Shown here: piece by piece, positions 15,724-29,206 of the stretch
Position numbering within the stretch: the first letter of the stretch is position 1
Layout: every line of letters begins with the position of its first letter
Source of the DNA: Nitrincola schmidtii
Lineage (GTDB): Bacteria; Pseudomonadota; Gammaproteobacteria; Pseudomonadales; Balneatricaceae
Direction of reading: 5' to 3'
Length of the DNA stretch: 64,000 nt
Assembly (NCBI RefSeq): GCF_008973715.1
Contig: NZ_WBOL01000015.1
Coordinates: 1-64,000, forward strand
Position numbers and translations under genes: made by a program
Notes under the pieces: model-generated
Seen by the model: only the letters and a program-made list of their open reading frames with translations
Told to the model about the DNA's origin: nothing
Database searches by the model: none

Positions 15724-16803
15724 TTAAAGGATACTTAAGGAATCCAGATCAAAATGAGGACCTACAAAAAGACGCTCAGGCCAGATCAATAGCATCACCG
15801 CTAAAACATTACGATGCTCTCCCTGCGCAAAGTCAGTTCTTCCCGTGGGCGAAGGAATCATTCGACTGACAGGATCATATGCAGCCACTAAACGCTGGCG
15901 TATCTGCTCTACAGCTGGATGATCAAGCTGACCGGTTAACGCTAAACTAATGCCCACTTCAGCAAGAATATCTTCCGTGGTGGTTTCTAATAAAATAGGA
16001 AGTTGTTCAATAAAATAATCAGTTATCCAAGCAAATGAGTCTTCAGGGAGGTGATCCTGATAATAACGACTAGCGGCTATCACAATATGTGTCAGGCCAT
16101 AAATTTTATTATGAAATTCTGAACGACTAAGAAGAGCGTCTCCTGATAACGGATAGATCTCTTGAAACCGCTGCATAAAGGCTTCTCGCAAATCCACCAC
16201 TCCTAGCTGGTACAAAAACCACACTTGATTGGCAGCTTGCGCGGCATAGTGTCGAATAGCGGCTTCATCCAGAAGAAAGCTTTCAAAATCAGCTTCTTTT
16301 AACACCTGTTTCAGCAAATCAACTTCATTTTCCGGTAATTGGCTTAGCAGTCCATAATACTCTAACTGCACTAACCGGAAGGCTAAGTCAGTATTGTATA
16401 ACATACTTGGATATCTACTGAATAAGATCGCACGTTGACGTTGCCGTTCAGTTCTCATGCTTCGCTGCTCTGTCATAAAACGATCTTGCATCGATACATA
16501 GTCAGCGTTAGACCTTAAACCTGTTACATCGCGATTAAATAGTCGCACTAAATGCGCTGCATGACGTTGCTGATACGGCAGAAAGGTTTCATCACCTGTC
16601 ACTCGATAAAGACGCTGGGCATAATGTCTTTGCAATGACATAGATAAGGTTTCCAACCCAGATTCGTAGTTAGCGCGAATCCCCTCAACGACCTGTTGTG
16701 AGGACGTGTAGATCTCGGTTTTTTGCGAACAGCCCTGCAACGCAAAAAGACACAGAAAAAGAAACCACAACACCGAAAACTGTTTTTTTGAAAGTTGCTG
16801 CAT
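15724..16803 (-). CDS. DUF3541-like lipoprotein of unknown function
   Basis: The N-terminus carries a lipoprotein signal peptide ending in the lipobox LQGC (Cys ~residue 25). The remaining ~335 residues are helix-rich and resemble the DUF3541 family of marine gammaproteobacteria (from memory). No catalytic motif is visible. 359 residues. It is the last conventional gene before the cassette array. Confidence 0.65.
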   Translation of the reverse strand: MQQLSKKQFSVLWFLFLCLFALQGCSQKTEIYTSSQQVVEGIRANYESGLETLSMSLQRHYAQRLYRVTGDETFLPYQQRHAAHLVRLFNRDVTGLRSNADYVSMQDRFMTEQRSMRTERQRQRAILFSRYPSMLYNTDLAFRLVQLEYYGLLSQLPENEVDLLKQVLKEADFESFLLDEAAIRHYAAQAANQVWFLYQLGVVDLREAFMQRFQEIYPLSGDALLSRSEFHNKIYGLTHIVIAASRYYQDHLPEDSFAWITDYFIEQLPILLETTTEDILAEVGISLALTGQLDHPAVEQIRQRLVAAYDPVSRMIPSPTGRTDFAQGEHRNVLAVMLLIWPERLFVGPHFDLDSLSIL

Positions 16804-17125
16804 GTTGATCTCTCTATGATCAGGATTGGCTTTTATTCACCTGATGACTGGGTTATGTCCTGTGCCAAGTATTCAGTGATGAGATTGAATCCTTGCGCAA
16901 CGCATCAAACATATCTTATACGGATAGCTTCGAATTTGCTTTCTTTGAAGTGAACTACTCACCGCTAAAGCGGTTGAGCTTCCAAACCAACAACCTTAGT
17001 CGCTAGTTTTTCTTTTTTGACGCTTCGCTGGTCACTAAGGAGCGATTGCTGCAGATTGTTATATGCCTTGCCTAGCAAAGCATATGCGCATAGACTATAC
17101 GCATTGTTCATATGGAGCAACCACC
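16804..17125. other. Gene-free left end of the integron array
   Basis: No convincing ORF. Positions ~16990-17071 contain a palindrome-rich stretch (CCTTAGTCGC ... CTAAGGAGCGA, then GTTATATGC at 17058) that resembles a degenerate attC and may be the array terminus. TATGCGCATA at 17083-17092 is a perfect palindrome just ahead of ccdA and could be its operator. Confidence 0.4.
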
Positions 17126-17371
17126 ATGAATTACGGATACAACACTCTAGCTCCCAAAAAACCAACTAATGTCAGTATAAACAGCGATTTACTTCAAAAA
17201 GCAAAAGACCTAAAGATAAATCTATCAGCAACTCTTGAACATGCCTTGGCTGAACAGCTGCGGAATGAACAACGCACCGAATGGCTCCGCGAAAACGCTG
17301 ACGCAATCCAAGCATACAATCAGTTCGTTGAAACAAACGGCACATTCAGCGATAGCGTTAGAAAGTTCTGA
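17126..17371 (+). CDS. ccdA: CcdA-family antitoxin
   Basis: Antitoxin and DNA-binding autorepressor of a type II module. 81 residues: an N-terminal ribbon-helix-helix (KKPTNVSINSDLLQKAKDL) and a C-terminal toxin-binding region (WLRENADAIQAYNQFVE) as in F-plasmid CcdA. The start at 17126 follows GGAG. Its stop overlaps the ccdB start by one base. It reads rightward, against most cassettes, and so needs its own promoter. Confidence 0.9.
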   Translation: MNYGYNTLAPKKPTNVSINSDLLQKAKDLKINLSATLEHALAEQLRNEQRTEWLRENADAIQAYNQFVETNGTFSDSVRKF

Positions 17372-17688
17372 TGGGCCAATTTTGCGTTTATATAAACCCA
17401 AACCCTGCGACTCGCGTCCAGTACCCTTATTTGCTGGACATACAAAGCGCTTTACTGAGTGAGTTGCGCACGACCATTGTTATACCGCTGACACCCTCCA
17501 AACTTGCCGCACCAATGAGAATGACTCGGCTAAACCCTACCTTTGATATTGACGGTAAAAGCTTTACTGTCATGACACAAGAGATTGCAGGTATAGATCG
17601 CAATCAGCTCGGTGCTCAAACGTATAACTTATCGTCGTATCGATCAGAAATAATCGCTGCACTCGATTTTATTCTCTCTGGGATATAA
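17371..17688 (+). CDS. ccdB: CcdB-family toxin (gyrase poison)
   Basis: Toxin of the CcdAB module; family members trap DNA gyrase on DNA. 105 residues, with CcdB landmarks YPYLLDIQS and TRLNPTFDIDG. The C-terminus ends in SGI where F-plasmid CcdB has WGI. As I recall, integron-borne Vibrio CcdB also lacks this tryptophan, so it need not be inactive. It overlaps ccdA by one base. Confidence 0.9.
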   Translation: MGQFCVYINPNPATRVQYPYLLDIQSALLSELRTTIVIPLTPSKLAAPMRMTRLNPTFDIDGKSFTVMTQEIAGIDRNQLGAQTYNLSSYRSEIIAALDFILSGI

Positions 17689-17756
17689 GCGGCGGTACGA
17701 ATTAAATATGAGACCAACCCCAGAATTATGCATATTATATTGAATGTAAATCCTAT

Positions 17757-17828
17757 GCTTAACGCCGCGCTCTGTGGAAATTTAGGAGCGCAATCGCGTA
17801 AATTTTCCGTAGCAGCGCATTGTTAGGC
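17757..17828 (-). other. attC recombination site
   Basis: Inverse core GCTTAAC (17757-17763) and core GTTAGGC (17822-17828) enclose an imperfect dyad (GGAAATTTAGGAGCG / CGCGTAAATTTTCC). It belongs to the oxidoreductase cassette to its right, whose stop codon lies in the core. Very similar to the sites at 18427 and 23064. Confidence 0.85.
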
Positions 17829-18401
17829 CAACGAGGCATGTCGCTTAACCTTCAGCAACCATTTGGCCCGCTGCGCCTCTGAAGTACCACGAACTGGGCC
17901 AAATGAAGTGATCTTAACTGGCTTGATGCCGCAGAACTCGAGAATAGTCTTTTTCATTTGATGATGCCCCGGCATGGTGTAGATGAACCTGTAATACCAT
18001 GGAGGGGTATCCATCGTAACGATGGCATGTGCGCTGCGACCTACCAGCAATCGATCCCACCATGGCGAATCCTTGCGGTACTTGAATGCATATCCCGGCA
18101 AGAAAATGCGATCAAACATTCCTTTAAGAATCGCTGGCATTGATCCCCACCAGATTGGGTAGACGAAAACCAGGTGCTGCGCCCAGCTGATTGATTCACG
18201 AATCTCGACAAGTGCAGGCTCCAACTCCTGCCGTTTGTTGTACCCGTGACGCAGCACGGGGTCAAACTCGACTTCTCCGAGTTTAAACAGCCTGACAGTA
18301 TGACCCGCTGCCCGCGCCGATGTAGCATACTCCTCCGCAATAGCATTGCAGAAACTCGATTCATCAGGATGGCCGAGAATAACTGTGATGTTCTTGGACA
18401 C
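17823..18401 (-). CDS. Flavodoxin-fold NAD(P)H oxidoreductase (quinone reductase-like)
   Basis: Predicted FMN/FAD-dependent reductase of the NQO1/MdaB/KefF family, moving two electrons from NAD(P)H to quinone-like acceptors. 192 residues: N-terminal VILGHPDESSFCNAI (phosphate loop), central VFVYPIWWGSMPAILKGMFDR and TMPGHHQMK all match the family. No signal peptide. The stop codon is supplied by the attC core at 17822-17828. A gene cassette reading leftward. Confidence 0.87.
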   Translation of the reverse strand: MSKNITVILGHPDESSFCNAIAEEYATSARAAGHTVRLFKLGEVEFDPVLRHGYNKRQELEPALVEIRESISWAQHLVFVYPIWWGSMPAILKGMFDRIFLPGYAFKYRKDSPWWDRLLVGRSAHAIVTMDTPPWYYRFIYTMPGHHQMKKTILEFCGIKPVKITSFGPVRGTSEAQRAKWLLKVKRHASLA

Positions 18402-18426
18402 AGTGAAGTTGCTCCCTATTATGTAT

Positions 18427-18498
18427 GCCTAACGCCTAGCTCACCGGAAAATTAGGAGCGCAGCGAGTAATGTATCCGCGTGCAGCAGCTGGTTAGGT
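18427..18498 (-). other. attC recombination site
   Basis: Inverse core GCCTAAC (18427-18433) and core GTTAGGT (18492-18498) with an inner dyad sharing AAATTAGGAGCGCA with the sites at 17757 and 23064. It follows the small membrane protein gene on its right. Confidence 0.85.
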
Positions 18499-18501
18499 GC
18501 A

Positions 18502-18903
18502 CTACGCCCAACCCCTTAGCCGAGCGGCAATGTACGGTGCAAGTGCCGTTGTCGCGAGAACAATAGGCCAGATGTTGCCATCTTTGAACGTATAGGCCTC
18601 AAGCAACTCGGGCCACGACTTGCCCTGCCAGAGCCCAAACGAAAACTCAAAAACGAGTGTAAGTGCGAGCCAGACCAGCCCAACGGCCCAGAGCTGAACG
18701 GGGAGGCTAATTTGTAGCCAAGGAAGCGATAAGTACGCCACGCCAATGATCAAGGTTGAAAGCAGCAACCCGCTAAGCACGAGTGCGGCAGGAGTTCCGA
18801 CCCCCGATATAAGTACAGACTCGCGCAGTGCTCCATTGGCAACGGCCAGTACAAGAATGCTAGCCCAAATCACCAATGCCTTTAAAGCGATTACCGTAAA
18901 CAT
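18502..18903 (-). CDS. Small membrane protein of unknown function
   Basis: 133 residues with four predicted membrane helices (about residues 4-24, 36-57, 66-88 and 111-128) and short loops. No family recognised. It is a single-gene cassette: the start lies 17 bases from the attC on the right and the stop 4 bases from the core on the left. Confidence 0.72.
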   Translation of the reverse strand: MFTVIALKALVIWASILVLAVANGALRESVLISGVGTPAALVLSGLLLSTLIIGVAYLSLPWLQISLPVQLWAVGLVWLALTLVFEFSFGLWQGKSWPELLEAYTFKDGNIWPIVLATTALAPYIAARLRGWA

Positions 18904-18919
18904 TGATTGTTCCTATAGT

Positions 18920-19024
18920 GCCTAATGCCGGTGTTCATTGGCAGCCTTGGCAGCGCGAAGCGGCGACAAGGCTGTCCGGTGGAGGGCCGCCAGGCCCGGA
19001 ACAAACTGGAACACTTGGTTAGGC
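18920..19024 (-). other. attC recombination site
   Basis: GCCTAAT (18920-18926, one mismatch to RYYYAAC) and GTTAGGC (19018-19024) bound a long G/C-rich dyad (GCCTTGGCAGCG / CGACAAGGC). At 105 bp it is the longest site here. Confidence 0.72.
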
Positions 19025-19029
19025 ATTTT

Positions 19030-19401
19030 TCAGTTCCTCGCACCGCAAGGAGTTGCTGGTAATTTGTCTGCCAGAGCTCGCTGCCATGCCGTTGCAACTT
19101 CCTGGGAACTGAATGTCCCTTTTAAGCTTCCACCAGAATTCGGCACCCACATTGTCGCCCTCAAAAACTCGCGACCACCGACAACAATGCGACTCAATCT
19201 ACCGCTGTTTGCTGCCGTGAACGTATCAAAACTCGCGGCACCAATTTCTGTTAACTTGACGAAAACAGGCCAGCCAAGATCTGTCTGTTCCCCTACTGCT
19301 GATTTCTGCACATAGGACGAGCACAGGTGAAACTCCAGATCAGTCTCTGCTACTGCAATGGCAGGAGTAGACAGCAAAAGAACAGCGATCCATTTAATCA
19401 T
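19030..19401 (-). CDS. Secreted protein resembling the SecDF P1-head domain
   Basis: 123 residues: a Sec signal peptide (MIKWIAVLLLSTPAIAVA) and then a compact domain. The run FVKLTEIGAASFDTFTAAN, a V-V-G-G-R strand turn, and GSLKGTFSSQEVATAWQRAL resemble the P1-head subdomain of SecD (x-L-T-x-x-G-A-x-x-F, and G-x-F-x-x-x-E-A). Two Cys could form a disulfide. It lacks all other SecD parts, so it is not a translocase subunit. Function unknown; the resemblance is from memory of the family. Confidence 0.6.
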   Translation of the reverse strand: MIKWIAVLLLSTPAIAVAETDLEFHLCSSYVQKSAVGEQTDLGWPVFVKLTEIGAASFDTFTAANSGRLSRIVVGGREFLRATMWVPNSGGSLKGTFSSQEVATAWQRALADKLPATPCGARN

Positions 19402-19408
19402 GACGATT

Positions 19409-19480
19409 GCCTAACACCCAGCGTAACCGGCGCCCAACGAAGCGCAGCGCAGTTGAGCATCCGAGTTGACGCTGTTGCTA
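19409..19480 (-). other. attC-like recombination site
   Basis: GCCTAAC (19409-19415) pairs with a degenerate core GTTGCTA (19474-19480). The inner part (CCAACGAAGCGCAGCG ... CATCCGAGTTGAC) resembles the sites at 19794 and 20490. Confidence 0.6.
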
Positions 19481-19489
19481 GAGCAGTTC

Positions 19490-19780
19490 CTATATCGCTG
19501 ACTCATAGCTGATCAACTCCATGTCAGCAGCCTGAGTACGCAGAGGGATAAGCTCCTGATAAGCCGCTGAGTTGTACCAGCTCTCTACGGAGTGAGGATC
19601 TGGAAAGCGAATAACAACCGCGTCTGTGTGATTGTGGCGTCCACTCAGTACGGCGATTTGTTTTCCCCGGAGCATTAACTCGGCGCCCCAAGGTGCTAGT
19701 GTAGCCGGCACTCGGTTTCGGTACTCAGCCCATTTTTCCACATCTTTCACGGTGATGTGACCAATAACGTATGCTGTCAT
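19490..19780 (-). CDS. DUF1330-family protein
   Basis: 96-residue dimeric alpha-beta barrel protein. The start MTAYVIGHITVKD, then YRNRVPATLAPWGAELMLRG and RFPDPHSVESWYNSAAYQELIPLR, are all typical of DUF1330. No catalytic role is established for the family. Single-gene cassette reading leftward. Confidence 0.88.
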   Translation of the reverse strand: MTAYVIGHITVKDVEKWAEYRNRVPATLAPWGAELMLRGKQIAVLSGRHNHTDAVVIRFPDPHSVESWYNSAAYQELIPLRTQAADMELISYESAI

Positions 19781-19793
19781 TTCTGTTTCCTTG

Positions 19794-19866
19794 TGCTAAC
19801 GCAAAGCGCATCGGCGACCTTGATGCAGCGAAGCGGAGACAAGGGCGTCCGAGTGCCGCGTTTGGC
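19794..19866 (-). other. attC-like recombination site
   Basis: TGCTAAC (19794-19800) and GTTTGGC (19860-19866), each one mismatch from consensus, with the inner motif GCAGCGAAGCGGAGACAAGG shared with the sites at 18920 and 20490. Confidence 0.6.
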
Positions 19867-19873
19867 TAAATTG

Positions 19874-20155
19874 CTATCGTTCACCCTCAAGGCCATGCCA
19901 CACTCGGAGAATAATGATGGCACTGGCATGAACTGAATATCGAACGACGTATTTTCCGAAAACCATATCTCGAACAGAGTCAGGCACCGGTGCCATTTCA
20001 ACTGGTGTGCCCATTTTGGGGAATTCTGGAAGTAATTCGATTTTGCCAACCAGTTCGATGGCAATCCTGGCTGCCGCCGACGGGCTGTGCACCGCAATGA
20101 ACTCCCTGAGGCGTTTCAAATCATCAATGGCTTCGTCCGTGTAAACCAGCTTCAC
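19874..20155 (-). CDS. RelE/ParE-family toxin
   Basis: 93 residues beginning VYTDEAIDDLKRLREFIA, the helical hairpin of ParE/RelE toxins, and ending in the strand pair (YVVRYSVHASAIIILRVWHG) that carries the active-site face. Whether it poisons gyrase (ParE) or cleaves mRNA (RelE) cannot be told from sequence. It overlaps its antitoxin gene by 4 bases. Confidence 0.85.
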   Translation of the reverse strand: MKLVYTDEAIDDLKRLREFIAVHSPSAAARIAIELVGKIELLPEFPKMGTPVEMAPVPDSVRDMVFGKYVVRYSVHASAIIILRVWHGLEGER

Positions 20156-20424
20156 TTACCTGACCTCGGCGCATCTTGCTCGTTTTCGGTTCCCCAGCTA
20201 TTAAGCCAACTGTGGACCTCGCTGGCATCAACAACCTTGCCTTGGGCAGCAGACTCCATTGCCTCTAACGTTTGTTTCCACCGCTCTTGCTCAAGCTGCT
20301 GCTTTGCTATGTATTCCGATAATGCCTGGTTGATTACCCAGCCTTTGCTACGGTTCAGCCTGCTGGCGATTGCTTCCAGATGCTGTTCAACTTCTGCTTG
20401 AAGGCGAACTGTGGTGACGCTCAT
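20152..20424 (-). CDS. CopG-type ribbon-helix-helix antitoxin
   Basis: 90 residues. The N-terminal ribbon-helix-helix (TTVRLQAEVEQHLEAIASRLNRSKGWVI) binds DNA; the acidic C-terminal tail should cap the toxin. It precedes the toxin and overlaps it by 4 bases, so the pair is one cassette. A promoter is likely in the 66 bases between it and the attC to the right. Confidence 0.85.
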   Translation of the reverse strand: MSVTTVRLQAEVEQHLEAIASRLNRSKGWVINQALSEYIAKQQLEQERWKQTLEAMESAAQGKVVDASEVHSWLNSWGTENEQDAPRSGK

Positions 20425-20489
20425 GACTATGACCCTCGAGTTTGGTGACTACAATGTATTACAGCATAGTCTACAAGGGTAGGCAAAAA

Positions 20490-20568
20490 ATTTAACGCTG
20501 AAGCGCGCCGGTGACTTTGAAGTAGCGAAGCGGAAAAAAAGGCATCCGAGTGACGCGCCTGGTTAGCT
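20490..20568 (-). other. attC recombination site
   Basis: ATTTAAC (20490-20496) and GTTAGCT (20562-20568) enclose TAGCGAAGCGG ... GCATCCGAGTGACGCGCC, like the sites at 19409 and 19794. The TTA of the core is the stop codon of the toxin gene on its right. Confidence 0.72.
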
Positions 20569-20865
20569 GTTCTCAAGCATGTATGCACGAAGCTGCCGCT
20601 CCTCTCGCATGACATAGAGGACGAGAACTCGCTTCTTATCCTCACGATAAAAAATACGGCACGGTGGAACCACTACCTCCCTGTATACCGAATTAGGGAG
20701 CTCTGGAGGAATCCGTCCGGAATGGGGAAAATCTTCCAAGCGATCGGTCTTATCGAAAACGTCCTGAACCAGATGACTTGCAGCAACAGGATTATCCAGA
20801 GCAATGTACTCAGCGATGGCATCCAGTTCTTGAAGCGCAGGCTCCGTCCAGATTACTTCAGCCAT
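20563..20865 (-). CDS. ParE/RelE-family toxin
   Basis: 100 residues with the ParE-type start (VIWTEPALQELDAIAEYIA) and end (REVVVPPCRIFYREDKKRVLVLYVMREER). It overlaps the upstream Phd-type antitoxin by 13 bases. The stop codon is in the attC core. This pair is distinct in sequence from the RelE/ParE-CopG cassette next to it. Confidence 0.86.
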   Translation of the reverse strand: MAEVIWTEPALQELDAIAEYIALDNPVAASHLVQDVFDKTDRLEDFPHSGRIPPELPNSVYREVVVPPCRIFYREDKKRVLVLYVMREERQLRAYMLENS

Positions 20866-21110
20866 TTACTCATTTTCTCCCTGGCCTCACTTTGGCTGTA
20901 CGTTCTTCCTTCAAGTACAGCAAGCTCTCCCCGTGAGAGCCCTTCAAGCAACTCAAGGCGACGTTGCATGAACTCGTAATCCTGCACATCGACAAGGTAT
21001 GCGGATGGCTGACCATGCTCGGTGATCAGTACCGGCTCTTTAGACAGGTGCAGGTCAGCCAAGATTTTTGTGGCTTGGCGCTTAAGATTTGTAACAAGCT
21101 CAACTTTCAT
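20853..21110 (-). CDS. Phd/YefM-type antitoxin
   Basis: 85 residues. The N-terminal Phd fold (LKRQATKILADLHLSKEPVLITEHGQPSAYLV) gives DNA binding and dimerisation; the C-terminal helix (SQSEAREKMSKWLK) should wrap the toxin. First gene of the pair. Confidence 0.86.
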   Translation of the reverse strand: MKVELVTNLKRQATKILADLHLSKEPVLITEHGQPSAYLVDVQDYEFMQRRLELLEGLSRGELAVLEGRTYSQSEAREKMSKWLK

Positions 21111-21174
21111 AGGCTCACCCTGAATCAGACTAACAGTATCACTATAGTATCACTTTTCGAGTGGCGGCAATACC

Positions 21175-21260
21175 AGCTAACGCCGCCCAGCACGCACGGC
21201 TTAGAAGTGAAGGCGAAGCCGCAACGGAATAGCTATCGCTGTACTTGGCCTTATTAGGGC
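21175..21260 (-). other. attC-like recombination site
   Basis: AGCTAAC (21175-21181) and ATTAGGG (21253-21259), with an inner segment GGCGAAGCCGCAACGGAA ... CTATCGC shared with the site at 23866. The right core has A for the invariant G, so it may be inactive. Confidence 0.5.
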
Positions 21261-21306
21261 ACTTAACTCATATTTGTACGGAAACTCCGTACATCAAGGT
21301 GCCTTC

Positions 21307-21579
21307 ATGGATACAATAAGTGTAAACAAATTTAGAGACAACCTGAAGAGCGTTGTAGAACAAGTAGTTAGCAGGAATGAACCACTCAAGGTAACTCGAC
21401 GAGCCGGAGATGCATCCGTTGTAATGAGCGCCGACGACTGGGAGCGAGAGCAAGAAACGCTTCATGTTCTCCAAAGCCAGAGCCTCATGCAACAGATTGC
21501 CTCCTCCCTTGAAACCCACAACCGTGGTAAAGGCTATATACCGACTGAAGAGCAAAAGAATGAGATCACTGGTATTTGA
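21307..21579 (+). CDS. yefM: YefM-family antitoxin
   Basis: 90 residues starting MDTISVNKFRDNLKSVVEQV, the Phd/YefM fold, with RRAGDASVVMSADDW typical of YefM. The ATG at 21307 follows AAGGTG. It reads rightward, opposite to its neighbours, and overlaps the toxin by 20 bases. Confidence 0.9.
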   Translation: MDTISVNKFRDNLKSVVEQVVSRNEPLKVTRRAGDASVVMSADDWEREQETLHVLQSQSLMQQIASSLETHNRGKGYIPTEEQKNEITGI

Positions 21580-21832
21580 AGGTAACACTTGGGAAGCGTA
21601 TGAAACTATGCACGAGAAGGACAAACAATTGCACGAGGCTTTGTGTAAATTACTCAAGGAAATGCTGCGTTCAAACGATCCTGCTTCAAGTTTAGGGAAG
21701 CCTGAGCCACTTAAGCACAGCCTCTCTGGCCTTTGGTCCAAGCGGATATCACAAAGAGATCGTTTGATATATCGGTTTGACGAAAAGTCCATTTATATCT
21801 TCGCTATTGGTGGTCACTACGATCAGCCCTAA
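21560..21832 (+). CDS. yoeB: YoeB/Txe-family mRNA endonuclease toxin
   Basis: 90 residues. The C-terminal GLWSKRISQRDRLIYRF and IFAIGGHYDQ motifs are diagnostic of YoeB/Txe ribosome-dependent RNases; the conserved Glu, Arg, His and Tyr are present. I start it at the ATG 21560, giving MRSLVFEGNTWEAYE, because longer in-frame readings lie inside yefM. Confidence 0.9.
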   Translation: MRSLVFEGNTWEAYETMHEKDKQLHEALCKLLKEMLRSNDPASSLGKPEPLKHSLSGLWSKRISQRDRLIYRFDEKSIYIFAIGGHYDQP

Positions 21833-21886
21833 CATCGGCCATAAGCCGTGCGATGCACGAGCGTCGGCTGCATGGCTTGGTTTTGT
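21827..21886 (-). other. Degenerate attC-like site
   Basis: CCCTAAC (21827-21833) and GTTTTGT (21880-21886) flank a dyad (CGGCCATAAGCCGTGCGATG / CGTCGGCTGCATGGCTTGG). Both ends deviate from consensus. Confidence 0.4.
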
Positions 21887-21927
21887 ATTACTACGCTGCG
21901 AAAACAAACCAACTAACTCACTCACAC

Positions 21928-22689
21928 TTATCCATTCGATTGAGCAGGTAATCTGATTTCTGGTGTTGAATGCGTGCGCTCCTCCGGTGGGGTCCAAAGC
22001 CTCTGTTGCCGAGGATTCCATCTCAGGCCATTCATTTTATTCTGATCGTCGCTTGTACCAAATCCAGGCATGTGAGCAATCCTATCGAAGAAATCCTCCG
22101 TGTGAAGAAGTGTCATCTTTACCTCATTCCAGTAGGTAGAAGATTGTTCTTGTCGATAACGCATCCCTGCTTCCATGCCGGAAAAGCGTCCTTCAGAAAC
22201 CAGATAGGCATCAATCTCTTCATTATCATAGCCCGCTAGGGAGGCGATTTGCTGTACATCTAGGCGGTAAGAAACTCCGCTTTGTACCCTTCCCTGGTTG
22301 ATGCGTGCCGTTCGGCGACACGTTTCTGCATTCAGATTTACCCCCGAGGAAAACAACGTGCTGGCCGATCGTACCTTGTCGCACAGCTGTTCGTCTCCGG
22401 AGCTCTCTGCAACCGCAGCAAAGCAGCGGCTTCTCAGCAGTGATACCTGATTCCCGACAGGTCCGAACCCTCCTCTACTCAAGCTTTGAGGATGAATCAG
22501 ATAGCATGGCTTGATGGAATGCAACTCGTTGGCCAAGGCGCGGTATTCGTATTCCAGCGCGTCAGGCTTTCTGGTGTCACCGAAGAGAAACTTGTCATCT
22601 GCATCAGTAAATAGCCCGCAGCCACTCAGTGACGCAGACATTATGAAAAAGACCACCAGGGAAAATATTCTTGCCATGAATTTACCCAT
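21928..22689 (-). CDS. Putative lipoprotein of unknown function
   Basis: About 253 residues with a lipoprotein signal ending in LSGC. The mature part contains further cysteines (in KPCYLIH, RSRCFAA, QLCDKV, ETCRR) that could form two disulfides, and a polar C-terminal third. No family recognised. The start is uncertain between 22689 and 22677; both keep the signal peptide. It is the largest single ORF in the array. Confidence 0.65.
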   Translation of the reverse strand: MGKFMARIFSLVVFFIMSASLSGCGLFTDADDKFLFGDTRKPDALEYEYRALANELHSIKPCYLIHPQSLSRGGFGPVGNQVSLLRSRCFAAVAESSGDEQLCDKVRSASTLFSSGVNLNAETCRRTARINQGRVQSGVSYRLDVQQIASLAGYDNEEIDAYLVSEGRFSGMEAGMRYRQEQSSTYWNEVKMTLLHTEDFFDRIAHMPGFGTSDDQNKMNGLRWNPRQQRLWTPPEERTHSTPEIRLPAQSNG

Positions 22690-23063
22690 CAGTTTTATTA
22701 ATACGTTAGCCGTGTCACACCCAGACCAGACACACAACGGCTTGCGGGCTAACCGGCCCGAGGCTTAGGGGTCCGCGTTGAAATCTCTGCTATGCACTGC
22801 TTTTAAGTATGCACATTTTAACTTACCTCTTCATTAGCGCCTAACGTTCGGAGCACTTAAGCACCATTTCCGAGCTCGATCATTTCCCCTTCAGAACACG
22901 ATTACGCCAATACAAAATCAGTGGAAAGATGACCACTGTGGGAGCAATGCATATCAGACTGCATTTAAGGCTAGCACTGATCCCAAACACTGTTTCCAGT
23001 CATGCACCGCTTTTAAGCGCAAAATTCCGACAAACTCCAGATGCTAAGACTCGATGCACTTGG
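22690..23063. other. Gene-free stretch inside the array
   Basis: No ORF that I believe. It holds attC-like ends (GGCTAAC at 22747, GCCTAAC at 22839) without clear partners, and a short repeated motif TGCACyGCTTTTAAG (near 22795 and 23006). It looks like one or two decayed or non-coding cassettes. Confidence 0.45.
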
Positions 23064-23135
23064 CGTTAACGCCGTGATCTGCGGAAATTTAGGAGCGAAA
23101 GCGAGTAAATTTTCCGAAGCAGCGCTTGGTTATAC
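23064..23135 (-). other. attC recombination site
   Basis: CGTTAAC (23064-23070) and GTTATAC (23129-23135) enclose the dyad CGGAAATTTAGGAGCG / GCGAGTAAATTTTCCG, nearly the same as the site at 17757. The core supplies the stop codon of the cupin gene. Confidence 0.78.
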
Positions 23136-23441
23136 GCTACCTTCACTCTCAACCACCAGTATTCTTACTTCCCCTCTAGGGTGAGCAACGTGTTCTGTAC
23201 CAATTGAAGCAAAAAAAATATCACCAGCATTCAATAAAACCGACTCTTCCTCGCCGTTCAATCGATAGAGCATATCAACCTGTCCATCCAATACGACGAA
23301 TACTTCTTCACCGTCATTAACATGCCACTTGTACGGTTGATCTGTCCAATGCAGGCGAGTAGTTATGCCATTCATATTGGCAATATCCGTTGTTCCCCAA
23401 GCTCGCTCAGCCTTAAATTCTTTACTTCTAACTACTTTCAT
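23130..23441 (-). CDS. Small cupin-domain protein
   Basis: 103 residues, single cupin barrel. The metal-binding motif 1 has the ligands in HVNDGEEVFVVLDG and motif 2 in GTEHVAHP. Such proteins bind a divalent metal; the substrate is not predictable. Single-gene cassette whose stop codon lies in the attC core. Confidence 0.86.
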   Translation of the reverse strand: MKVVRSKEFKAERAWGTTDIANMNGITTRLHWTDQPYKWHVNDGEEVFVVLDGQVDMLYRLNGEEESVLLNAGDIFFASIGTEHVAHPRGEVRILVVESEGSV

Positions 23442-23473
23442 AATCCTCTCCGAAAGTGGACGTTACGCTACTC

Positions 23474-23545
23474 GTATAACGCCGAGGTAACCGGACGCTT
23501 TAAAGCGTCAGCGTATAAGCGGTCCGGTTGACCGACTGGTTAAAT
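23474..23545 (-). other. attC recombination site
   Basis: GTATAAC (23474-23480) and GTTAAAT (23539-23545) enclose an imperfect palindrome around CGCTTTAAAGCG, with GTAACCGGACGC / GCGGTCCGGTTGAC arms. The core supplies the stop codon of the next ORF. Confidence 0.75.
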
Positions 23546-23857
23546 GCCGTACTCACGCTCAACTTTGGCAACCCGAACCCGAAAACTGGAATACCATTGC
23601 TGATGGCCAAGTCGCTGGGCCTCTCGATGCTCAGCATTTTTCTTCCAGTTGGTGATTGCTTCAAGGCTTGCCCAGTACGACACGGTAATACCTAGGTTCT
23701 CCCTAGCAGACTCAATACCGAGAAATCCGGGCTGCTCTGATGCCAATGCCACCATTCGTTCAGCCTTTTCATAGTACCCATTGTCACCTTTCGTGCGATG
23801 ACTGCTGAAGATCACCGCGTAGTATGGAGGTTCAGGTGTGTTGGCAATCTCTGACAT
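23540..23857 (-). CDS. Antibiotic biosynthesis monooxygenase (ABM)-domain protein
   Basis: 105 residues of the dimeric ABM/YgiN fold: YYAVIFSSHRTKGDNGYYEKAERM, PGFLGIESAR and TVSYWASLEAITNWKKNAEHR are typical. Family members are haem-degrading or cofactor-free oxygenases or stress proteins. The ATG at 23857 follows AGAGGAA. Leftward cassette with its stop in the attC core. Confidence 0.87.
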   Translation of the reverse strand: MSEIANTPEPPYYAVIFSSHRTKGDNGYYEKAERMVALASEQPGFLGIESARENLGITVSYWASLEAITNWKKNAEHREAQRLGHQQWYSSFRVRVAKVEREYGI

Positions 23858-23865
23858 AAATTCCT

Positions 23866-23937
23866 CTAAGCATTTGTAGTGGATGTGGAGGCGAAGCCGC
23901 AACGGAAAAACTATCGCGGTGCTAGGCCTTGTTAACT
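23866..23937 (-). other. attC-like recombination site
   Basis: The core GTTAACT is at 23931-23937; the left end (CTAAGCA at ~23866) is degenerate. The inner segment GGCGAAGCCGCAACGGAA ... CTATCGCGG matches the site at 21175. Confidence 0.5.
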
Positions 23938-24450
23938 CTTGGCTGTAAATGCGTCATGGTACGAAACTTCTCCTTTTGGGAACTCGCCGGAAAACGATAG
24001 CGCCTGAAAATACTCTGCAGGCACATCGGGTAGGACAAGCCCATCTACCACCTTGAGTCCGAAGCGCTCATAATAAGTAGGGTTGCCGAGCACCACGCAA
24101 CCTAAGGCATTCATTTCCTCAAGCGCAGCAAGTGAATTCTGCATCAGCTTAGTTCCAATACCGAGCCCTTGAAATTCAGGAAGCACAGATATTGGCCCAA
24201 GTCCAAACCAGCCAGTTACACCACCTGAAAGAATGACGGGAGAAATCGCCACATGACCAATAATTTCTCCTTCAGCTTTAGCCACCTGAAAAATCTTAAG
24301 CGCGCCCGCACGGCGAAGAGCATCTACAATATACTGCTCCATATGATCAGTATGAGGCGCGCTAAAAAAGGCCTGCTTTGTAACCTGATGTATTCTAGCG
24401 GCATCGCCGGATTTTTCGTTACTTAGTTCAATATTCAAGCTGGACCTCAT
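23932..24450 (-). CDS. GNAT N-acetyltransferase, YhbS-like
   Basis: 172 residues. Acetyl-CoA-binding motif in VLPEFQGLGIGTKLM, followed by GCVVLGNPTYYERFGL, the YhbS/putative acetyltransferase signature. The start at 24450 lies just inside the attC boundary at 24456; the longer reading to 24495 would include the recombination site. The substrate is unknown. Confidence 0.87.
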   Translation of the reverse strand: MRSSLNIELSNEKSGDAARIHQVTKQAFFSAPHTDHMEQYIVDALRRAGALKIFQVAKAEGEIIGHVAISPVILSGGVTGWFGLGPISVLPEFQGLGIGTKLMQNSLAALEEMNALGCVVLGNPTYYERFGLKVVDGLVLPDVPAEYFQALSFSGEFPKGEVSYHDAFTAKS

Positions 24451-24455
24451 AACCG

Positions 24456-24513
24456 AGTTAACGTTGGAATTCAGCAGCGGCCCAAGGCCGTCCAATAGAA
24501 TGGCTAGTTAAGC
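24456..24513 (-). other. attC recombination site
   Basis: AGTTAAC (24456-24462) and GTTAAGC (24507-24513) flank a dyad (ATTCAGCAGCGGCCC / GGCCGTCCAATAGAAT). The core supplies the stop codon of the sigma-factor gene. Confidence 0.65.
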
Positions 24514-25092
24514 ACATTTTCCTTTGCAGCTTGACGGCGAAAGGCAATGGTAGTCGCTGACCAAGCTGGCAGCCATCTCCACGTGGCAACACGCCAATAA
24601 CTTCTCCTTAAGCATCACACGGCCACGTGCCGCTCTGCTCTTGATGGCGGATACTGATACTGCCTGCTCTTCCGCAATCACGCGCATCGTCTCACCTTCA
24701 AGATCGGTCGCAATAAGTGTGTCACGATAGATCGGCGGAAGCTCCTTGATGAACATTTTGAGGCAACTTGCTACTTCCGTATGAAGCTGTATGTCCTCGA
24801 TCTGTTCAGGTTCCGACATGTTTTCGTCGAGTTCCAGTGTTTGATCACCGATTGCGCGATAGTGGTCAATCAAGGTTGTTCGTGCAGCAGCGAATAACCA
24901 GCCAGTCAGGCTGTCGATTCGACGTCCCGAACGCTTCGATGTCAGTGCCTTCACGAATATCTCTTGCAATAAATCATCCGCTAGCGTTGCATCGGGGACT
25001 CGCCTACGAAGATAACTTCGCAGGCTCTGCTGGAGTCGCGAAAAAGCGGCGCTCAAGTCCTCATTAGAGAGCGGCATCACGTCTTCAGCCAT
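24508..25092 (-). CDS. ECF sigma factor, SigZ-like, with Cys-rich tail
   Basis: 194-residue extracytoplasmic-function sigma factor. Region 2 spans ~residues 20-85 (LADDLLQEIFVKAL, SLTGWLFAAARTTLIDHYR) and region 4 ~120-170 (LPPIYRDTLIATDLEG, VSVSAIKSRAARGR). After region 4 a tail of ~30 residues carries five cysteines (LLACCH, DYHC, SSCKGKC), a possible metal or redox switch as suggested for SigZ. It overlaps the arsI/cadI-like gene by 8 bases. No anti-sigma gene is present. Confidence 0.87.
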   Translation of the reverse strand: MAEDVMPLSNEDLSAAFSRLQQSLRSYLRRRVPDATLADDLLQEIFVKALTSKRSGRRIDSLTGWLFAAARTTLIDHYRAIGDQTLELDENMSEPEQIEDIQLHTEVASCLKMFIKELPPIYRDTLIATDLEGETMRVIAEEQAVSVSAIKSRAARGRVMLKEKLLACCHVEMAASLVSDYHCLSPSSCKGKCA

Positions 25093-25585
25093 AGCAATGC
25101 CCTTGAACCTTCGCCGTCGCTTGAGGAATGCAACCGGTCTCACACTCCGAGAATTCGTCAGACGTACGTAAAGGGATACAGCAGGCTCCTGACTCCGTGG
25201 TGCAGCCCTCCCCAAACGCAAAAGCATCGGACATCGTTAGGAAATACTCCCATGCCATTCCCTGTGGATCGATGGTCCAGTGTTTTTCGCTCTTGGCATA
25301 ACAACAAGCGACCTCACCTTGATCCATCGCCGCACCACCTGCTGCATCGTCTGCCAACACCTTGAGACTAGCTAGTTCTTCAGGGGTCTCGGCCTGCATG
25401 CCAAAATGATTGAGGCCGGTCGGATGCCCCCGTGAAGAAATAGCAAAGTTAACACGCGGGTCTTCTAGCATCCACTTAGCATAATCCGGCTCCTGTTTGG
25501 ACGGCAGCTGTCCAAAAAGCTTGCTATAGAAGGTGATGCTTTTAGTGAGGTCGTTAACTGCAATATGAACGTGAAAGTGTTTCAT
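25085..25585 (-). CDS. ArsI/CadI-family VOC metalloprotein
   Basis: Vicinal-oxygen-chelate protein like ArsI (C-As lyase for organoarsenicals) and CadI. The start FHVHIAVNDLTKSITFYSKLFG, then YAKWMLEDPRVNFAISSRG and the vicinal cysteine pair in VACCYAKSEK, are diagnostic; His and Glu metal ligands are in the expected places (FHVH, LNHFG, AWEYF). The 166 residues include a Cys-rich tail (TESGACC, CETGC, HCYG). Which metal or arsenical is bound is not certain. First gene of a two-gene cassette with the sigma factor. Confidence 0.88.
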   Translation of the reverse strand: MKHFHVHIAVNDLTKSITFYSKLFGQLPSKQEPDYAKWMLEDPRVNFAISSRGHPTGLNHFGMQAETPEELASLKVLADDAAGGAAMDQGEVACCYAKSEKHWTIDPQGMAWEYFLTMSDAFAFGEGCTTESGACCIPLRTSDEFSECETGCIPQATAKVQGHCYG

Positions 25586-26371
25586 TTGAGGCTCCTAAAA
25601 AAGTTAAAAAGCGCATTGTGTTCGACGCCCTTGTATAGACGGAATACCTCACAAATGGTCGCACAATGAAACGGAGCCACATACTGCATAACAAATAAGC
25701 GGTTATACGGCGGCGCAGCCGCAGCTATAACAGCCTGTTGAACGCCGCTCAGTACTTAATCTAGGGAATTTGCTTTTAATGATCGGTGGGGTTCCTTGGT
25801 AGTCACACCTAAAACTCGAACCAGCACTGTCGCTTAACTCGATCTCAATCCCTTAAATTTTTATCTACTTTGTGACTTTATGTAGCCTTTATAGCCATAT
25901 TTCTTATGTTTGCCAACAGAGTAGCCTCAGGTACAACCTGATCAGATATCGCGTCGTAATACTCGTGCGAGGTTAACTAACTACTGTTCAGCAACGCCAA
26001 AGATACTTCGTTGCGCAGTGTTATCATCGACTCACTCGTGCACTCACATAAACAGGTCTCTAGCTCATGGCCACATGATGGACAATGGGCATGGTTTGAG
26101 CTGATCGATGATAACTCACTCTTCTGCTTCGTTTCTCTAAGTGCACTTACCATCAGTCCTCTAAATCGTTTAGAGAGTGCCTCACTGACAATAGGTATCT
26201 TTTATGTCGACTCTTCCAGGTTTGTGAGGGCGTAATGACACCTGAAGGAATTAAACAGTGAAAATGCACATGTCGTGTTAATACCTAGTTAAAGTAAGGC
26301 ACAGGGAGTAACTGTTCCTTTTGTTTTTCGCATCATGCACGGCTTGCATTCGTTTGGCACTTAGGACAATT
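25586..26371. other. Gene-free stretch where attI and the integrase 5' part would be expected
   Basis: About 790 bases. Apart from the attC-like site at 25686-25743 I see no credible gene. Several short ORFs (for example 26011-26235) have no ribosome site or recognisable product. I found no readable N-terminal integrase sequence. Probably decayed integron-platform DNA. Confidence 0.5.
25686..25743 (-). other. attC-like recombination site, right-most in the array
   Basis: GCATAAC (25686-25692) and a consensus core GTTGAAC (25737-25743) enclose GGTTATACGGCGGCGCAGCC / GCAGCTATAACAGCC. It implies a further cassette to its right, now without a clear ORF, or a remnant of attI. Confidence 0.5.
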
Positions 26372-26563
26372 TAGGAAAAAATCAGCTGCCATACATTTCG
26401 TCACTCTTTTGCGACTCATCTGCTTCAAGCTGGCAGCGATATTCGCACAGTGCAAGAATTATTGGGCCATAACGATGTGAGTACTACCCAAATTTATACC
26501 CATGTGATTGGTCAGCACTATGCAGGCACAACCAGCCCATTAGATCGTTTACACCACTGCTAA
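26372..26563 (+). pseudogene. intI: C-terminal fragment of an integron integrase (IntI)
   Basis: The + frame ending at TAA 26561-26563 encodes [17 protein letters not shown], then [20 protein letters not shown] and THVIGQH ... TSPLDRL. This is box II of tyrosine recombinases (H-x-x-R, then the LLGH His, then the catalytic Tyr in IYTH), and the wording is that of IntI rather than XerC/D. Only about 60 residues remain of the usual ~320; an in-frame stop (TAG, 26372) and unrelated sequence precede it. The orientation is divergent from the cassettes, as expected. Confidence 0.85.
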
Positions 26564-26629: not shown

Positions 26630-29206
26630 TTAACGGAAAGTAAACTTCCCTGCTTCCACATCCACACCGATTTCACTACCGGGGGGATAATCGCCAGCCA
26701 GTAGTTTTTGCGCCAGCGGGTTTTCGATCCATTGTTGGATTGCACGCTTTAATGGACGTGCACCGTAAATGGGTTCGAAACCAACATCGACCAGTTTTTC
26801 CATGGCGGTTGGTGTCATGGTTAGGCGCAGATCGAATTCGGCCAAGCGCTTACGTAAGCGATCTAGCTGAATGTTGGCGATGCCTGCGACCTGATCTTTA
26901 CGCAAGCTATGGAACACCACCACTTCGTCGATACGGTTGATGACTTCGGGGCGGAAGTGCATACCGACGACTTCCATAACCGCATTTTTCATCAATTCAT
27001 AATCGTCATCGTCGCTGAAACCCTGTATCAAATCAGATCCCAGGTTAGAGGTCATGACGATGATGGTGTTACGGAAGTCAACAGTGCGACCTTGCCCATC
27101 GGTTAAGCGGCCATCTTCCAGCACTTGTAGCAAGATGTTAAAGACATCAGGGTGTGCTTTTTCCACTTCATCTAATAGAAGCACAGAGTAAGGTTTACGA
27201 CGCACGGCTTCGGTCAGGTATCCGCCTTCTTCATAACCCACATAGCCTGGAGGTGCACCAATTAAGCGAGCTACGGAGTGTTTCTCCATAAACTCGGACA
27301 TATCGATGCGAACCATCGCCTCTTCAGTGTCGAAAAGGAAGTTCGCCAGCGCTTTACACAGCTCGGTTTTACCCACACCCGTCGGTCCTAAGAATAGGAA
27401 GCTACCACTGGGGCGTGCAGGGTCGGATAAACCAGCACGTGAGCGACGAACGGCATTGGATACCGCAACCACGGCTTCACTTTGACCGACTACGCGACTG
27501 TGAAGTGCGTCTTCCATACGCAGCAGCTTGTCACGCTCGCCTTCCAACATTTTGCTAACGGGGATGCCGGTCCAACGCGCAACCACTTCGGCCACTTCTT
27601 CTTCGGTGACTTTGTTGCGTAGCAGTTTAGTCTCATGGGCACCCTGTTCGACCGAGTCTGCCGCTTGCAATTGTTTTTCCAGTTCAGGAATACGGCCGTA
27701 TTTAATCTCAGATGCTTTCGCTAGATCGCCTAAACGTCTTGCTTGTTCTTCCTCTAAGCGCGCTAACTCAAGCTTCTCTTTAACTTGAGCAGAGCCTTGC
27801 AGCGTGGCTTTTTCCGCTTTCCAGATCTCATCAAGGTCAGAGTATTCTTTCTCTAACTTGGTGATATTCTGCTCTAGCTCTTCTAAGCGCTTGCGCGTCG
27901 CCTCGTCTTTCTCTTTCTTTAGCGCTTCCCGTTCCATTTTTAGCTGAATCAAACGACGCTCTAAGCGATCCATGGATTCAGGCTTGGAATCCATTTCCAT
28001 ACGAATACGTGAAGCCGCTTCATCCACAAGATCGATGGCTTTATCCGGTAATTGTCGATCGGTGATGTAACGTTGGCTAAGCTTGGCGGCAGCAATAATT
28101 GCAGAGTCAGTGATATCGACACCGTGATGCACTTCGTAACGCTCTTTCAAGCCACGTAAAATCGCAATAGTGTCTTCTTCGCTGGGTTCATCGACAATCA
28201 CTTTTTGGAAACGACGTTCAAGTGCTGCATCTTTTTCGACATACTGGCGGTATTCATCCAAAGTGGTCGCGCCAACACAGTGCAATTCTCCACGCGCCAA
28301 CGCAGGCTTGAGCATGTTACCAGCATCCATCGCGCCTTCGCCTTTACCGGCACCGACCATGGTGTGCAGCTCGTCAATAAACAGAATGATTTGACCTTCC
28401 TGTTTCGACAGCTCATTCAATACTGCTTTTAAGCGTTCTTCAAATTCGCCACGGAATTTTGCGCCCGCAATTAATGAACCCATATCCAAGGCCAGCACAC
28501 GTTTGTGCTTTAAGCCTTCGGGAACTTCGCCATTGATGATGCGCTGTGCTAAGCCTTCGACGATAGCGGTTTTACCGACACCGGGTTCGCCGATAAGCAC
28601 GGGATTGTTTTTGGTTCGGCGCTGAAGTACTTGAATCGTGCGGCGTATCTCTTCGTCACGGCCAATCACAGGATCAAGTTTGCCGTTTTCAGCGCGCTCG
28701 GTTAGGTCAACACAGTATTTATCTAAGGCTTGACGAGATTCTTCAACATTAGGATCGGTCACGGCCGCACCCCCACGCATGTTGTTGATTGCTTCGATGA
28801 GTTTTTCACGCGTTACGCCCGCTTCTTTCAGGACACGGCCCGCGTCACTCTTATCATCCACCATTGCCAATAGCATTAATTCACTGGCGATATATTGGTC
28901 GCCACGTTGTTGTGCCAGTTTATCGGTCAGGTTGAACAGACGAGCCATATTTTGTGATAGGCGAATTTCACCGTCTGGATCGTTGACTTGCGGCAAACGA
29001 TCCAGTGCTTCACCGATTTTGCGAGTCAATAAAGGTAACTGAGCACCTGCTTGGCCCAGTAATGGACGAACCGAACCATCACGCTGCTCAATAAAAGCAG
29101 CGAGTAAGTGGATAGGTTCCATAAAGTTATGATCTTTGCCGACCGCTAATGACTGAGCATCAGTCAATGCGTCCTGCAACTTAGAGGTAAATTTATCGGG
29201 TCTCAT
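26630..29206 (-). CDS. clpB: ClpB disaggregase
   Basis: Hexameric AAA+ chaperone that, with DnaK, pulls proteins out of aggregates. Clp N domain at residues 1-145, first Walker A GEPGVGKT (~205), a long coiled-coil middle domain (~410-525), second Walker [10 protein letters not shown] (~605), and the C-terminal D2-small domain. 858 residues, full length. A sigma-32 promoter lies directly upstream. Confidence 0.98.

What the first reader, a model, noticed from the sequence alone, without database searches (positions are those of the whole stretch)
16985..26563. Chromosomal integron array that has lost its integrase
About 13 coding cassettes with attC-like sites lie between chromosomal genes. 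The only integrase sequence is a ~60-residue C-terminal stub. The array can probably no longer capture cassettes by itself, yet many attC ends remain close to consensus. Such arrays outside Vibrio are less described, and this one is rich in enzymes and stability modules.
Basis: partly seen in the sequence, partly recalled or inferred. Interest (0 to 1): 0.8.

Follow-up and report, generated by a model that had tools for sequence, protein, structure and literature searches.

The report
Integron array that lost its integrase
A bacterial chromosome carries a row of captured gene cassettes whose capture enzyme has been reduced to a stub, with the wreck of a jumping gene where the capture site should be; related jumping genes sit exactly on integron capture sites in several other bacteria.

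Summary
A covariance model trained only on attC sites of other genomes finds 10 sites at E<=0.018 in the window, all on the minus strand at 17757-24513; three more were placed by eye or score weakly. Cassette-length pieces recur singly in 8 of the 10 other Nitrincola genomes, never as a block. The integrase is a 62-residue C-terminal stub orthologous to an intact IntI beside clpB in a sister genome; TIGR02249 finds no other intI in this genome. So this is a sedentary chromosomal integron turned CALIN, a known kind.

In sister genomes such elements abut the attI core exactly, in two of them different element types at the same nucleotide of a 97% identical attI. Of 76 distinct element left ends, 12 lie beside an IntI, 14 abut an attC, 6 have attC only downstream, and 44 show none of these. 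Many element ends look like those of a gene cassette. Most likely such an element entered at attI here, and a deletion then removed its left end, attI and most of intI. My ten open-access searches showed no description of IS91-family elements at attI; one paper notes an IS91-like element beside an attC.

The parts
15724..16803 (-). DUF3541 gene, chromosomal left border of the array
   Evidence: PF12060; homologues (40-75% identity) in 8 of the 10 other genus members
16975..17066 (-). possible degenerate attC of the ccdAB cassette (by eye)
   Evidence: not found by the CM
17063..17371 (+). ccdA antitoxin, inverted cassette
   Evidence: PF07362
17371..17688 (+). ccdB toxin
   Evidence: PF01845; 17039-17688 (G009: 17061-17688) recurs at 77-80% in G009, G010, G006, G002
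17757..17828 (-). attC
   Evidence: CM R1 29.3 bits
17823..18401 (-). flavodoxin-fold oxidoreductase cassette
   Evidence: PF02525; NF007280 below its cut-off
18427..18498 (-). attC
   Evidence: 32.5 bits
18502..18903 (-). 133-aa ORF, no family
18920..19024 (-). attC (core GTT changed to ATT)
   Evidence: 27.3 bits
19030..19401 (-). 123-aa ORF, no family
19409..19483 (-). attC (core AAC changed to AGC)
   Evidence: 31 bits
19490..19780 (-). DUF1330 cassette
   Evidence: PF07045
19794..19871 (-). attC (core AAC changed to AGC)
   Evidence: 26 bits
19874..20424 (-). ParE toxin and CopG-like antitoxin cassette
   Evidence: PF05016, PF01402; 19798-20498 recurs at 94-98% in G010, G002, G009
20490..20568 (-). 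attC
   Evidence: 25.3 bits
20563..21110 (-). ParE toxin and Phd/YefM antitoxin cassette
   Evidence: PF05016, PF02604; 20561-21170 recurs in G002 (93%) and G009 (81%), in pieces in G010
21175..21259 (-). attC (core AAC changed to AAT)
   Evidence: 30.4 bits
21274..21832 (+). YefM-YoeB cassette, inverted
   Evidence: PF02604, PF06769; about 21178-21833 recurs in G008 (92%), G002 (91%), G005 (84%), and 21199-21833 in G010 (94%)
21828..21885 (-). weak attC of the lipoprotein cassette
   Evidence: E=0.3 at 21831-21882
21928..22737 (-). putative lipoprotein cassette (by eye), no family
23064..23135 (-). attC
   Evidence: 18.2 bits, E=0.018
23130..23441 (-). cupin cassette
   Evidence: PF07883
23474..23545 (-). 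attC
   Evidence: 35.5 bits, E=3.7e-7
23540..23902 (-). ABM-domain cassette
   Evidence: PF03992
23863..23940 (-). degenerate attC (core GTT changed to CTT), by eye
   Evidence: not among the CM matches
23932..24495 (-). GNAT acetyltransferase cassette
   Evidence: PF00583
24456..24513 (-). attC
   Evidence: 19.3 bits, E=0.009
24508..25585 (-). first cassette: ArsI/CadI-like VOC protein (25085-25585) and SigZ-like sigma factor (24508-25227)
   Evidence: NF041414 112 bits (cut-off 116), NF007215 141.9 bits (cut-off 212), both below cut-off; PF00903, PF04542, PF08281
25687..26370 (-). IS91-family element remnant: right end (about 25690) next to the first cassette, two internal deletions, left end lost
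   Evidence: three pieces 94/91/88% identical to G007:C209=L078; the full copy encodes a Zn_Tnp_IS91+Y2_Tnp transposase and a tyrosine recombinase
26371..26563 (+). C-terminal stub of intI
   Evidence: TIGR02249 254-315; 85.7% nucleotide identity over 251 columns (stub plus flank) to the intact intI region of G007
26630..29206 (-). clpB, chromosomal right border; an intI also lies beside clpB in G007, G003, G009

Best explanation
This is a sedentary chromosomal integron of a Nitrincola species, anchored beside clpB, that has become an integrase-less array (CALIN). Shown: attC sites, cassettes that recur separately in relatives, an orthologous intI stub, no other intI found, and an IS91-family remnant whose right end abuts the first cassette. 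Inferred: an IS91-family element (tyrosine recombinase plus HUH-type transposase) inserted at the attI core, between attI and the first cassette, as its relatives do in sister genomes; a deletion then fused the inside of the element to intI (profile position 254, about residue 259 of the 321 in G007), removing the element's left end, attI, any attI-side promoter and about 80% of intI (about 2.2 kb if lengths were as in G007). The array can no longer capture cassettes by itself; it could still donate cassettes to an IntI acting in trans, and the 7 of 12 sites with both core triplets intact are the likelier substrates.
For: attC by an independently trained model. Cassettes recur singly near predicted bounds, several with attC matches on their edges there. 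Stub orthologous to an intact intI in the same clpB-adjacent place in G007. Remnant aligns to a full IS91-family element. Related elements abut attI exactly in G001, G002, G010 and G003, and lie beside IntI in Rheinheimera, two Arsukibacterium, Alkalimonas, a gammaproteobacterial MAG and others. At the attI of G002 and G010 (97% identity over 570 bp) two element types sit at the same nucleotide.
Against: The left junction of the element is lost in this window, so its landing at attI is inferred. The order of events is unknown: intI may have been broken first. intI is also broken or absent at the clpB locus of G003, G009 and G004, where neither the type A remnant nor the type B end was found, so no IS91 element is needed for the loss. 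44 of 76 surveyed element left ends showed no integron context by the three tests.
Confidence: 0.8

Rival explanations
1. The integrase was lost by ordinary drift and deletion, as in Xanthomonas; the IS91-family remnant is incidental and arrived independently.
For: intI is broken in G003 and G009 and absent in G004 at the clpB locus, with no type A remnant or type B end found there. PMC12444791 describes repeated intI inactivation, citing frameshifts, stop codons and large deletions (passages).
Against: The remnant lies exactly between first cassette and stub, with its right end on the cassette's core and its broken side fused to intI; IS91-family elements sit at attI in four other genus members (G001, G002, G003, G010).
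Confidence: 0.3
2. The IS91-family unit is a gene cassette in the strict sense, put at attI by IntI itself, not by its own transposase.
For: The left core GTTGAAC or GTTGGAC fits GTTRRRY. In 15 of 30 loci looked at, a clear right end was found: a RYYCAAC-type core, stem-loop, then GTT; in 8 of these 15 the core is GTTCAAC, exactly complementary to the left core GTTGAAC. Type B ends in a 115-nt site of attC form with GTCCAAC and GTTGGAC. All 59 attC matches lie in the orientation of the element in their locus (strands compared).
Against: 44 of 76 sites show no integron by the tests used, and the class-wide sample gave no IntI-adjacent case. The type A right end is a weak attC match (12.1 bits in the window). 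In 5 of the 15 loci the right core is GTCCAAC with a left core GTTGAAC, one mismatch, and in L155 it is GCTCAAC.
Confidence: 0.3
3. The hairpins are not attC sites and the genes are an ordinary accessory cluster.
For: Five of 12 sites have a changed core triplet, and Rfam has no match in the window.
Against: CM matches at E<=0.018 are confined to one strand and one 7-kb stretch; cassette-by-cassette recurrence near those bounds.
Confidence: 0.02
4. The array is still served by an integrase elsewhere in the genome.
For: The genome is a draft of 34 contigs and holds two more attC matches at C31.
Against: TIGR02249 finds only the stub and two Xer-like recombinases in it; completeness is listed as 100%.
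Confidence: 0.04

Closest known systems
CALIN / inactivated sedentary chromosomal integron (Xanthomonas; CALIN of IntegronFinder)
   Same: attC array without integrase at the ancestral integron place; intI truncated or deleted in a lineage-specific way (PMC12444791, PMC9024848; passages)
   Different: Here the break point is occupied by an IS91-family remnant between first cassette and stub
IS91-like element ISShvi3 beside an attC in Shewanella (PMC9229058, passage)
   Different: One named case in one genus; the passage read has no attI occupation, no shared cores at both ends and no link to intI loss
IS1111-attC group (IS110 family; Tetu and Holmes 2008, Post and Hall 2009, seen only as references)
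   Same: Insertion sequences that target integron recombination sites
   Different: DEDD transposase (abstract of PMC11187229 in the listing) and, as I recall, insertion inside attC; the elements here have IS91-type domains and a GTT core on both sides
ISCR1 in complex class 1 integrons (abstract of PMC6218425 in the listing; passage of PMC8876359)
   Same: IS91-like element associated with integrons
   Different: ISCR1 is tied to the 3' conserved segment; these sit at attI or attC cores

Membership tests
Sedentary chromosomal integron / CALIN | two or more attC sites in one orientation | tested here: met
   10 CM matches at E<=0.018, all minus strand
Sedentary chromosomal integron / CALIN | no functional intI nearby (CALIN) | tested here: met
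   62-residue stub only
Sedentary chromosomal integron / CALIN | cassettes individually mobile | tested here: met
   cassette-length pieces recur one at a time in 8 of 10 other genus members; copies in G002:C5 and G005:C66 have attC matches on both edges
Sedentary chromosomal integron / CALIN | integron platform ancestral at this chromosomal place | tested here: met
   intact orthologous intI beside clpB in G007; another intI lineage beside clpB in G003 and G009
Complete integron | intact intI and attI | tested here: not met
   about 80% of intI and the attI region are absent
Complete integron | attC sites recombined by IntI | not testable with these tools
   needs a recombination assay
IS91 family (element remnant) | zinc-binding plus HUH (Y2_Tnp) transposase in the full copy | tested here: met
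   PF14319 and PF04986 in the L078 and L059 copies; the window copy is broken
IS91 family (element remnant) | tetranucleotide GTTC/CTTG target (recalled) | tested here: inconclusive
   clear right ends are followed by GTTA, not GTTC; no transposition seen
IS1111-attC group | DEDD transposase of IS110 type | tested here: not met
   IS91-type domains instead

The most novel reading that the evidence does not exclude
A group of IS91-family elements found in many gammaproteobacteria has taken on the outer form of integron gene cassettes (5' core GTTRRRY, 3' attC-like hairpin whose first core is complementary to its own 5' core) and enters integrons precisely at att cores, often attI. From there they help to produce integrase-less arrays and orphan attI copies; the window is one such broken platform.
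Probability: 0.45. Interest if true: 0.78.

Novelty: new variant of a known kind. Interest (0 to 1): 0.6.

Why it matters
How complete integrons turn into the very common integrase-less arrays is mostly put down to degradation. Here a specific, repeatedly observed occupant of the capture site is named, with exact junctions in several genera, which makes two questions testable: whether IS91-family transposition targets attI/attC, and whether such elements can be moved as cassettes by IntI.

Tried and rejected
Simple pattern scans for RYYYAAC...GTTRRRY and hand-made stem scorers were not specific enough in the window, so a covariance model was built instead. Rfam gave no match. PADLOC gave no match at E<=0.01 for 10 proteins. 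The idea that the stub might be the element's own tyrosine recombinase was rejected: that gene lies on the opposite strand, and the stub matches intI of G007. A search of 293 genomes of the order with the type B transposase gave matches in 5, two of which, L219 and L223, had an intact-length IntI upstream; only L219 shows the known left end. Folding energy of the 75 bases before the element did not separate element flanks from random GTT places: only L179 and L239 fell below 5%. The class-wide left-end survey (21 places in 11 of 369 genomes) gave no IntI-adjacent case and two attC-abutting ones, L232 and L242 (L243 is a near copy of L242's flank), so the association is not general over the class. 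Dropped before the count: places without GTT before the motif (12 of 67, among them the Rhodobacter group; 5 of 28), places within 80 bases of a locus end, and near-identical flanks (L271, which has IntI, was merged with L256). In one search one of two Xer comparison proteins came out empty, so only one served. I did not build a tree of the element's recombinase.
Full report
The window lies on a 93-kb contig of a 3.14-Mb genome, G000. Its genus is Nitrincola: genus member G010 shares contig lengths and sequence with Nitrincola tibetensis xg18, and a G007 contig is identical to one of the MAG Oceanospirillales bacterium DLM2.Bin78.

Observation. Between a DUF3541 gene and clpB lie 13 cassette-like units: ccdAB, a flavodoxin-fold oxidoreductase, two unassigned ORFs, DUF1330, parE-copG, parE-phd, yefM-yoeB, a putative lipoprotein, a cupin, an ABM protein, a GNAT acetyltransferase, and an ArsI/CadI-like plus sigma-factor unit. 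For a test independent of the window I built a covariance model from 21 attC-like sites of other genomes; its pairs covary (85.3% of cells paired, shuffled mean 64.0%; covariation 0.519 against 0.164). In the window it finds 10 sites at E<=0.018, all minus strand, from 17757 to 24513; the site expected at 21831 has E=0.3; the next matches are the right end of the IS91 remnant (E=0.76) and 51579 (E=1.4). Two further sites were placed by eye. In 5 of the 12 sites from 17757 rightwards one core triplet is changed. The training sites were chosen to have both triplets, so this is not a fair comparison with relatives.

Cassettes. A search of the genus with 8.7 kb of the array shows the units one at a time: 19798-20498 in G010, G002, G009 (94-98%) and part of it in G001 and G007; about 21178-21833 in G010, G008, G002, G005 (84-94%); 20561-21170 in G002 and G009; 17039-17688 in G009, G010, G006, G002 (77-80%). 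Cassette-length matches occur in 8 of the 10 other genomes; G003 and G004 have only short, attC-sized ones. The first two bounds agree with the predicted attC-to-attC bounds within a few bases. Some units share an array elsewhere (17039-17688 and 19798-20498 on G002:C5), but no genome holds the block. In G002:C5 and G005:C66 the model finds attC on both edges of such a copy; I did not check the context of every copy.

Integrase. TIGR02249 finds only positions 254-315 at 26366-26551 here, and no other integron integrase in G000. In G007 an intact intI (321 aa) lies at the same place beside clpB (ClpB 97% identical). G003 and G009 carry another intI lineage beside clpB (45-49% identity to the G007 IntI), frame-broken in G003 and missing an inner C-terminal part in G009. 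G004 has attC sites after clpB but no intI there; its integrase matches lie on other contigs. So the place is an old integron platform with repeated integrase loss. That much is a known kind (PMC9024848 and PMC12444791, passages).

The IS91 remnant. Positions 25687-26370, between first cassette and stub, match a repeated element. The full copy, G007:C209, encodes a transposase with Zn_Tnp_IS91 and Y2_Tnp domains (384 aa) and a tyrosine recombinase (288 aa). The window keeps its right end and three pieces at 94, 91 and 88% identity; two inner stretches and the left 1.1 kb are gone, and the broken side is fused to intI.

Where such elements sit. In G001, G002 and G010 an IS91-family element abuts the exact point where, in G007, the first cassette joins attI. 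G003 shows the same kind of junction beside a truncated intI. G006 has the junction and an attI-like flank, but no intI was found in the 1.5 kb held. G002 and G010 have attI regions 97% identical over 570 bp, occupied at the same nucleotide by two different element types. Elsewhere an IntI lies 219-255 bp upstream of the element in Rheinheimera, two Arsukibacterium (broken in one, L182), Alkalimonas and a gammaproteobacterial MAG.

Count. From the loci I took 77, ran the attC model on them, and classified 76 distinct left ends preceded by GTT: 12 have IntI on the opposite strand, 161-330 bp away (in 4 of the 12, L064, L120, L182 and L272, the IntI is broken or partial); 14 abut an attC ending at the junction (one of them, L072, at E=0.077); 6 more have attC only downstream; 44 show none of these. 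The classification required opposite-strand IntI and same-strand attC; independently of that, all 59 attC matches lie in the element's orientation. Of the 44, at least seven (L123, L142, L150, L251, L256, L257, L264) have an attI-like flank by homology, over 87-322 bp. A control on 2,180 random GTT triplets of the same loci gave a stem score of 8.0 or more in 0.5%, against 6 of 55 element flanks; folding energy did not separate the two. Caveats: loci were chosen by similarity to the Nitrincola element, and several loci have only 1.5 kb of flank. The class-wide sample (21 places in 11 of 369 genomes) gave no IntI-adjacent case and two attC-abutting ones. In the order-wide sample (37 places in 20 of 390 genomes; 28 loci examined, 23 with GTT) five places had IntI beside them and four abutted an attC by the model. 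The association is thus strong in some marine and soda-lake type hosts and not general.

Form of the ends. The left end reads GTTGAAC (type A and relatives) or GTTGGAC (type B), which fits the core GTTRRRY. Right ends were sought in 30 loci; 15 gave a clear form, a RYYCAAC-type core, a stem-loop with a 3' side ending near CTTANNN, then GTT of the flank, and the other 15 gave none or an implausible match. In 8 of the 15 the core is GTTCAAC, exactly complementary to the left core GTTGAAC, as in the attC of a free circular cassette (recalled); in others it differs by a base. Type B ends in a 115-nt site of attC form, GTCCAAC to GTTGGAC. Either the elements are moved as cassettes by IntI, or their own transposase inserts at att cores while keeping a core on both sides. 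The evidence does not decide.

Mechanism for the window. Shown: right end of a type A remnant on the first cassette's core (GTTATGC); stub beyond. Inferred: insertion at attI, then deletion of the left end, attI and about 80% of intI. Consequence: no integrase and no attI, so no capture by the array itself; movement of cassettes in trans remains possible.

Literature. Ten searches (on IS91, attC, attI, CALIN and related terms; on Nitrincola with integron). Beyond the ISShvi3 remark in PMC9229058 (passage) I saw nothing on IS91-family elements at attI. The library is open access only, and most listed papers were seen as listings.

Noticed in passing
L173 887-1039, L176 4591-4737, L194 4529-4681, L210 3095-3244: In four loci of purple-sulfur-type and related bacteria a C-terminal intI stub of about 50 residues lies head-to-head with the C-terminal half of the element's tyrosine recombinase, joined by a palindrome near the homologous catalytic motif.
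   Followed up: partly
L256/L271, L251/L267, L264/L245, L142/L144: Within one genome a second attI-like copy (87-283 bp, 81-96% identical) precedes a copy of the element, with no intI found in the flank held; perhaps read-through transposition past the left end. The L144 attI used in the comparison has its IntI but no element at attI.
   Followed up: partly
G000:C31:200645-200717 and 201883-201953: Two more attC matches elsewhere in the window's own genome, one at 55 bits, better than any in the window.
   Followed up: no
G003:C1:393359-394307, G009:C10:192989-193753: A different IntI lineage sits beside clpB in two relatives, so the same chromosomal place hosts two integrase lineages.
   Followed up: no
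G005 (contigs C32, C55, C109 and others): 52 attC matches at E<=0.1 in a genus member with no intI over the family cut-off; the genome is listed with 8% contamination.
   Followed up: no
L082 4501-4729, L083 4320-4715, L084 3829-4231: Short internally deleted derivatives of the element; L083 (G010) and L084 (G002) share the same deletion point, like a non-autonomous family.
   Followed up: no
L059 13517-16160: Two type B elements in tandem directly at attI of G001, the second at the 3' core of the first.
   Followed up: partly
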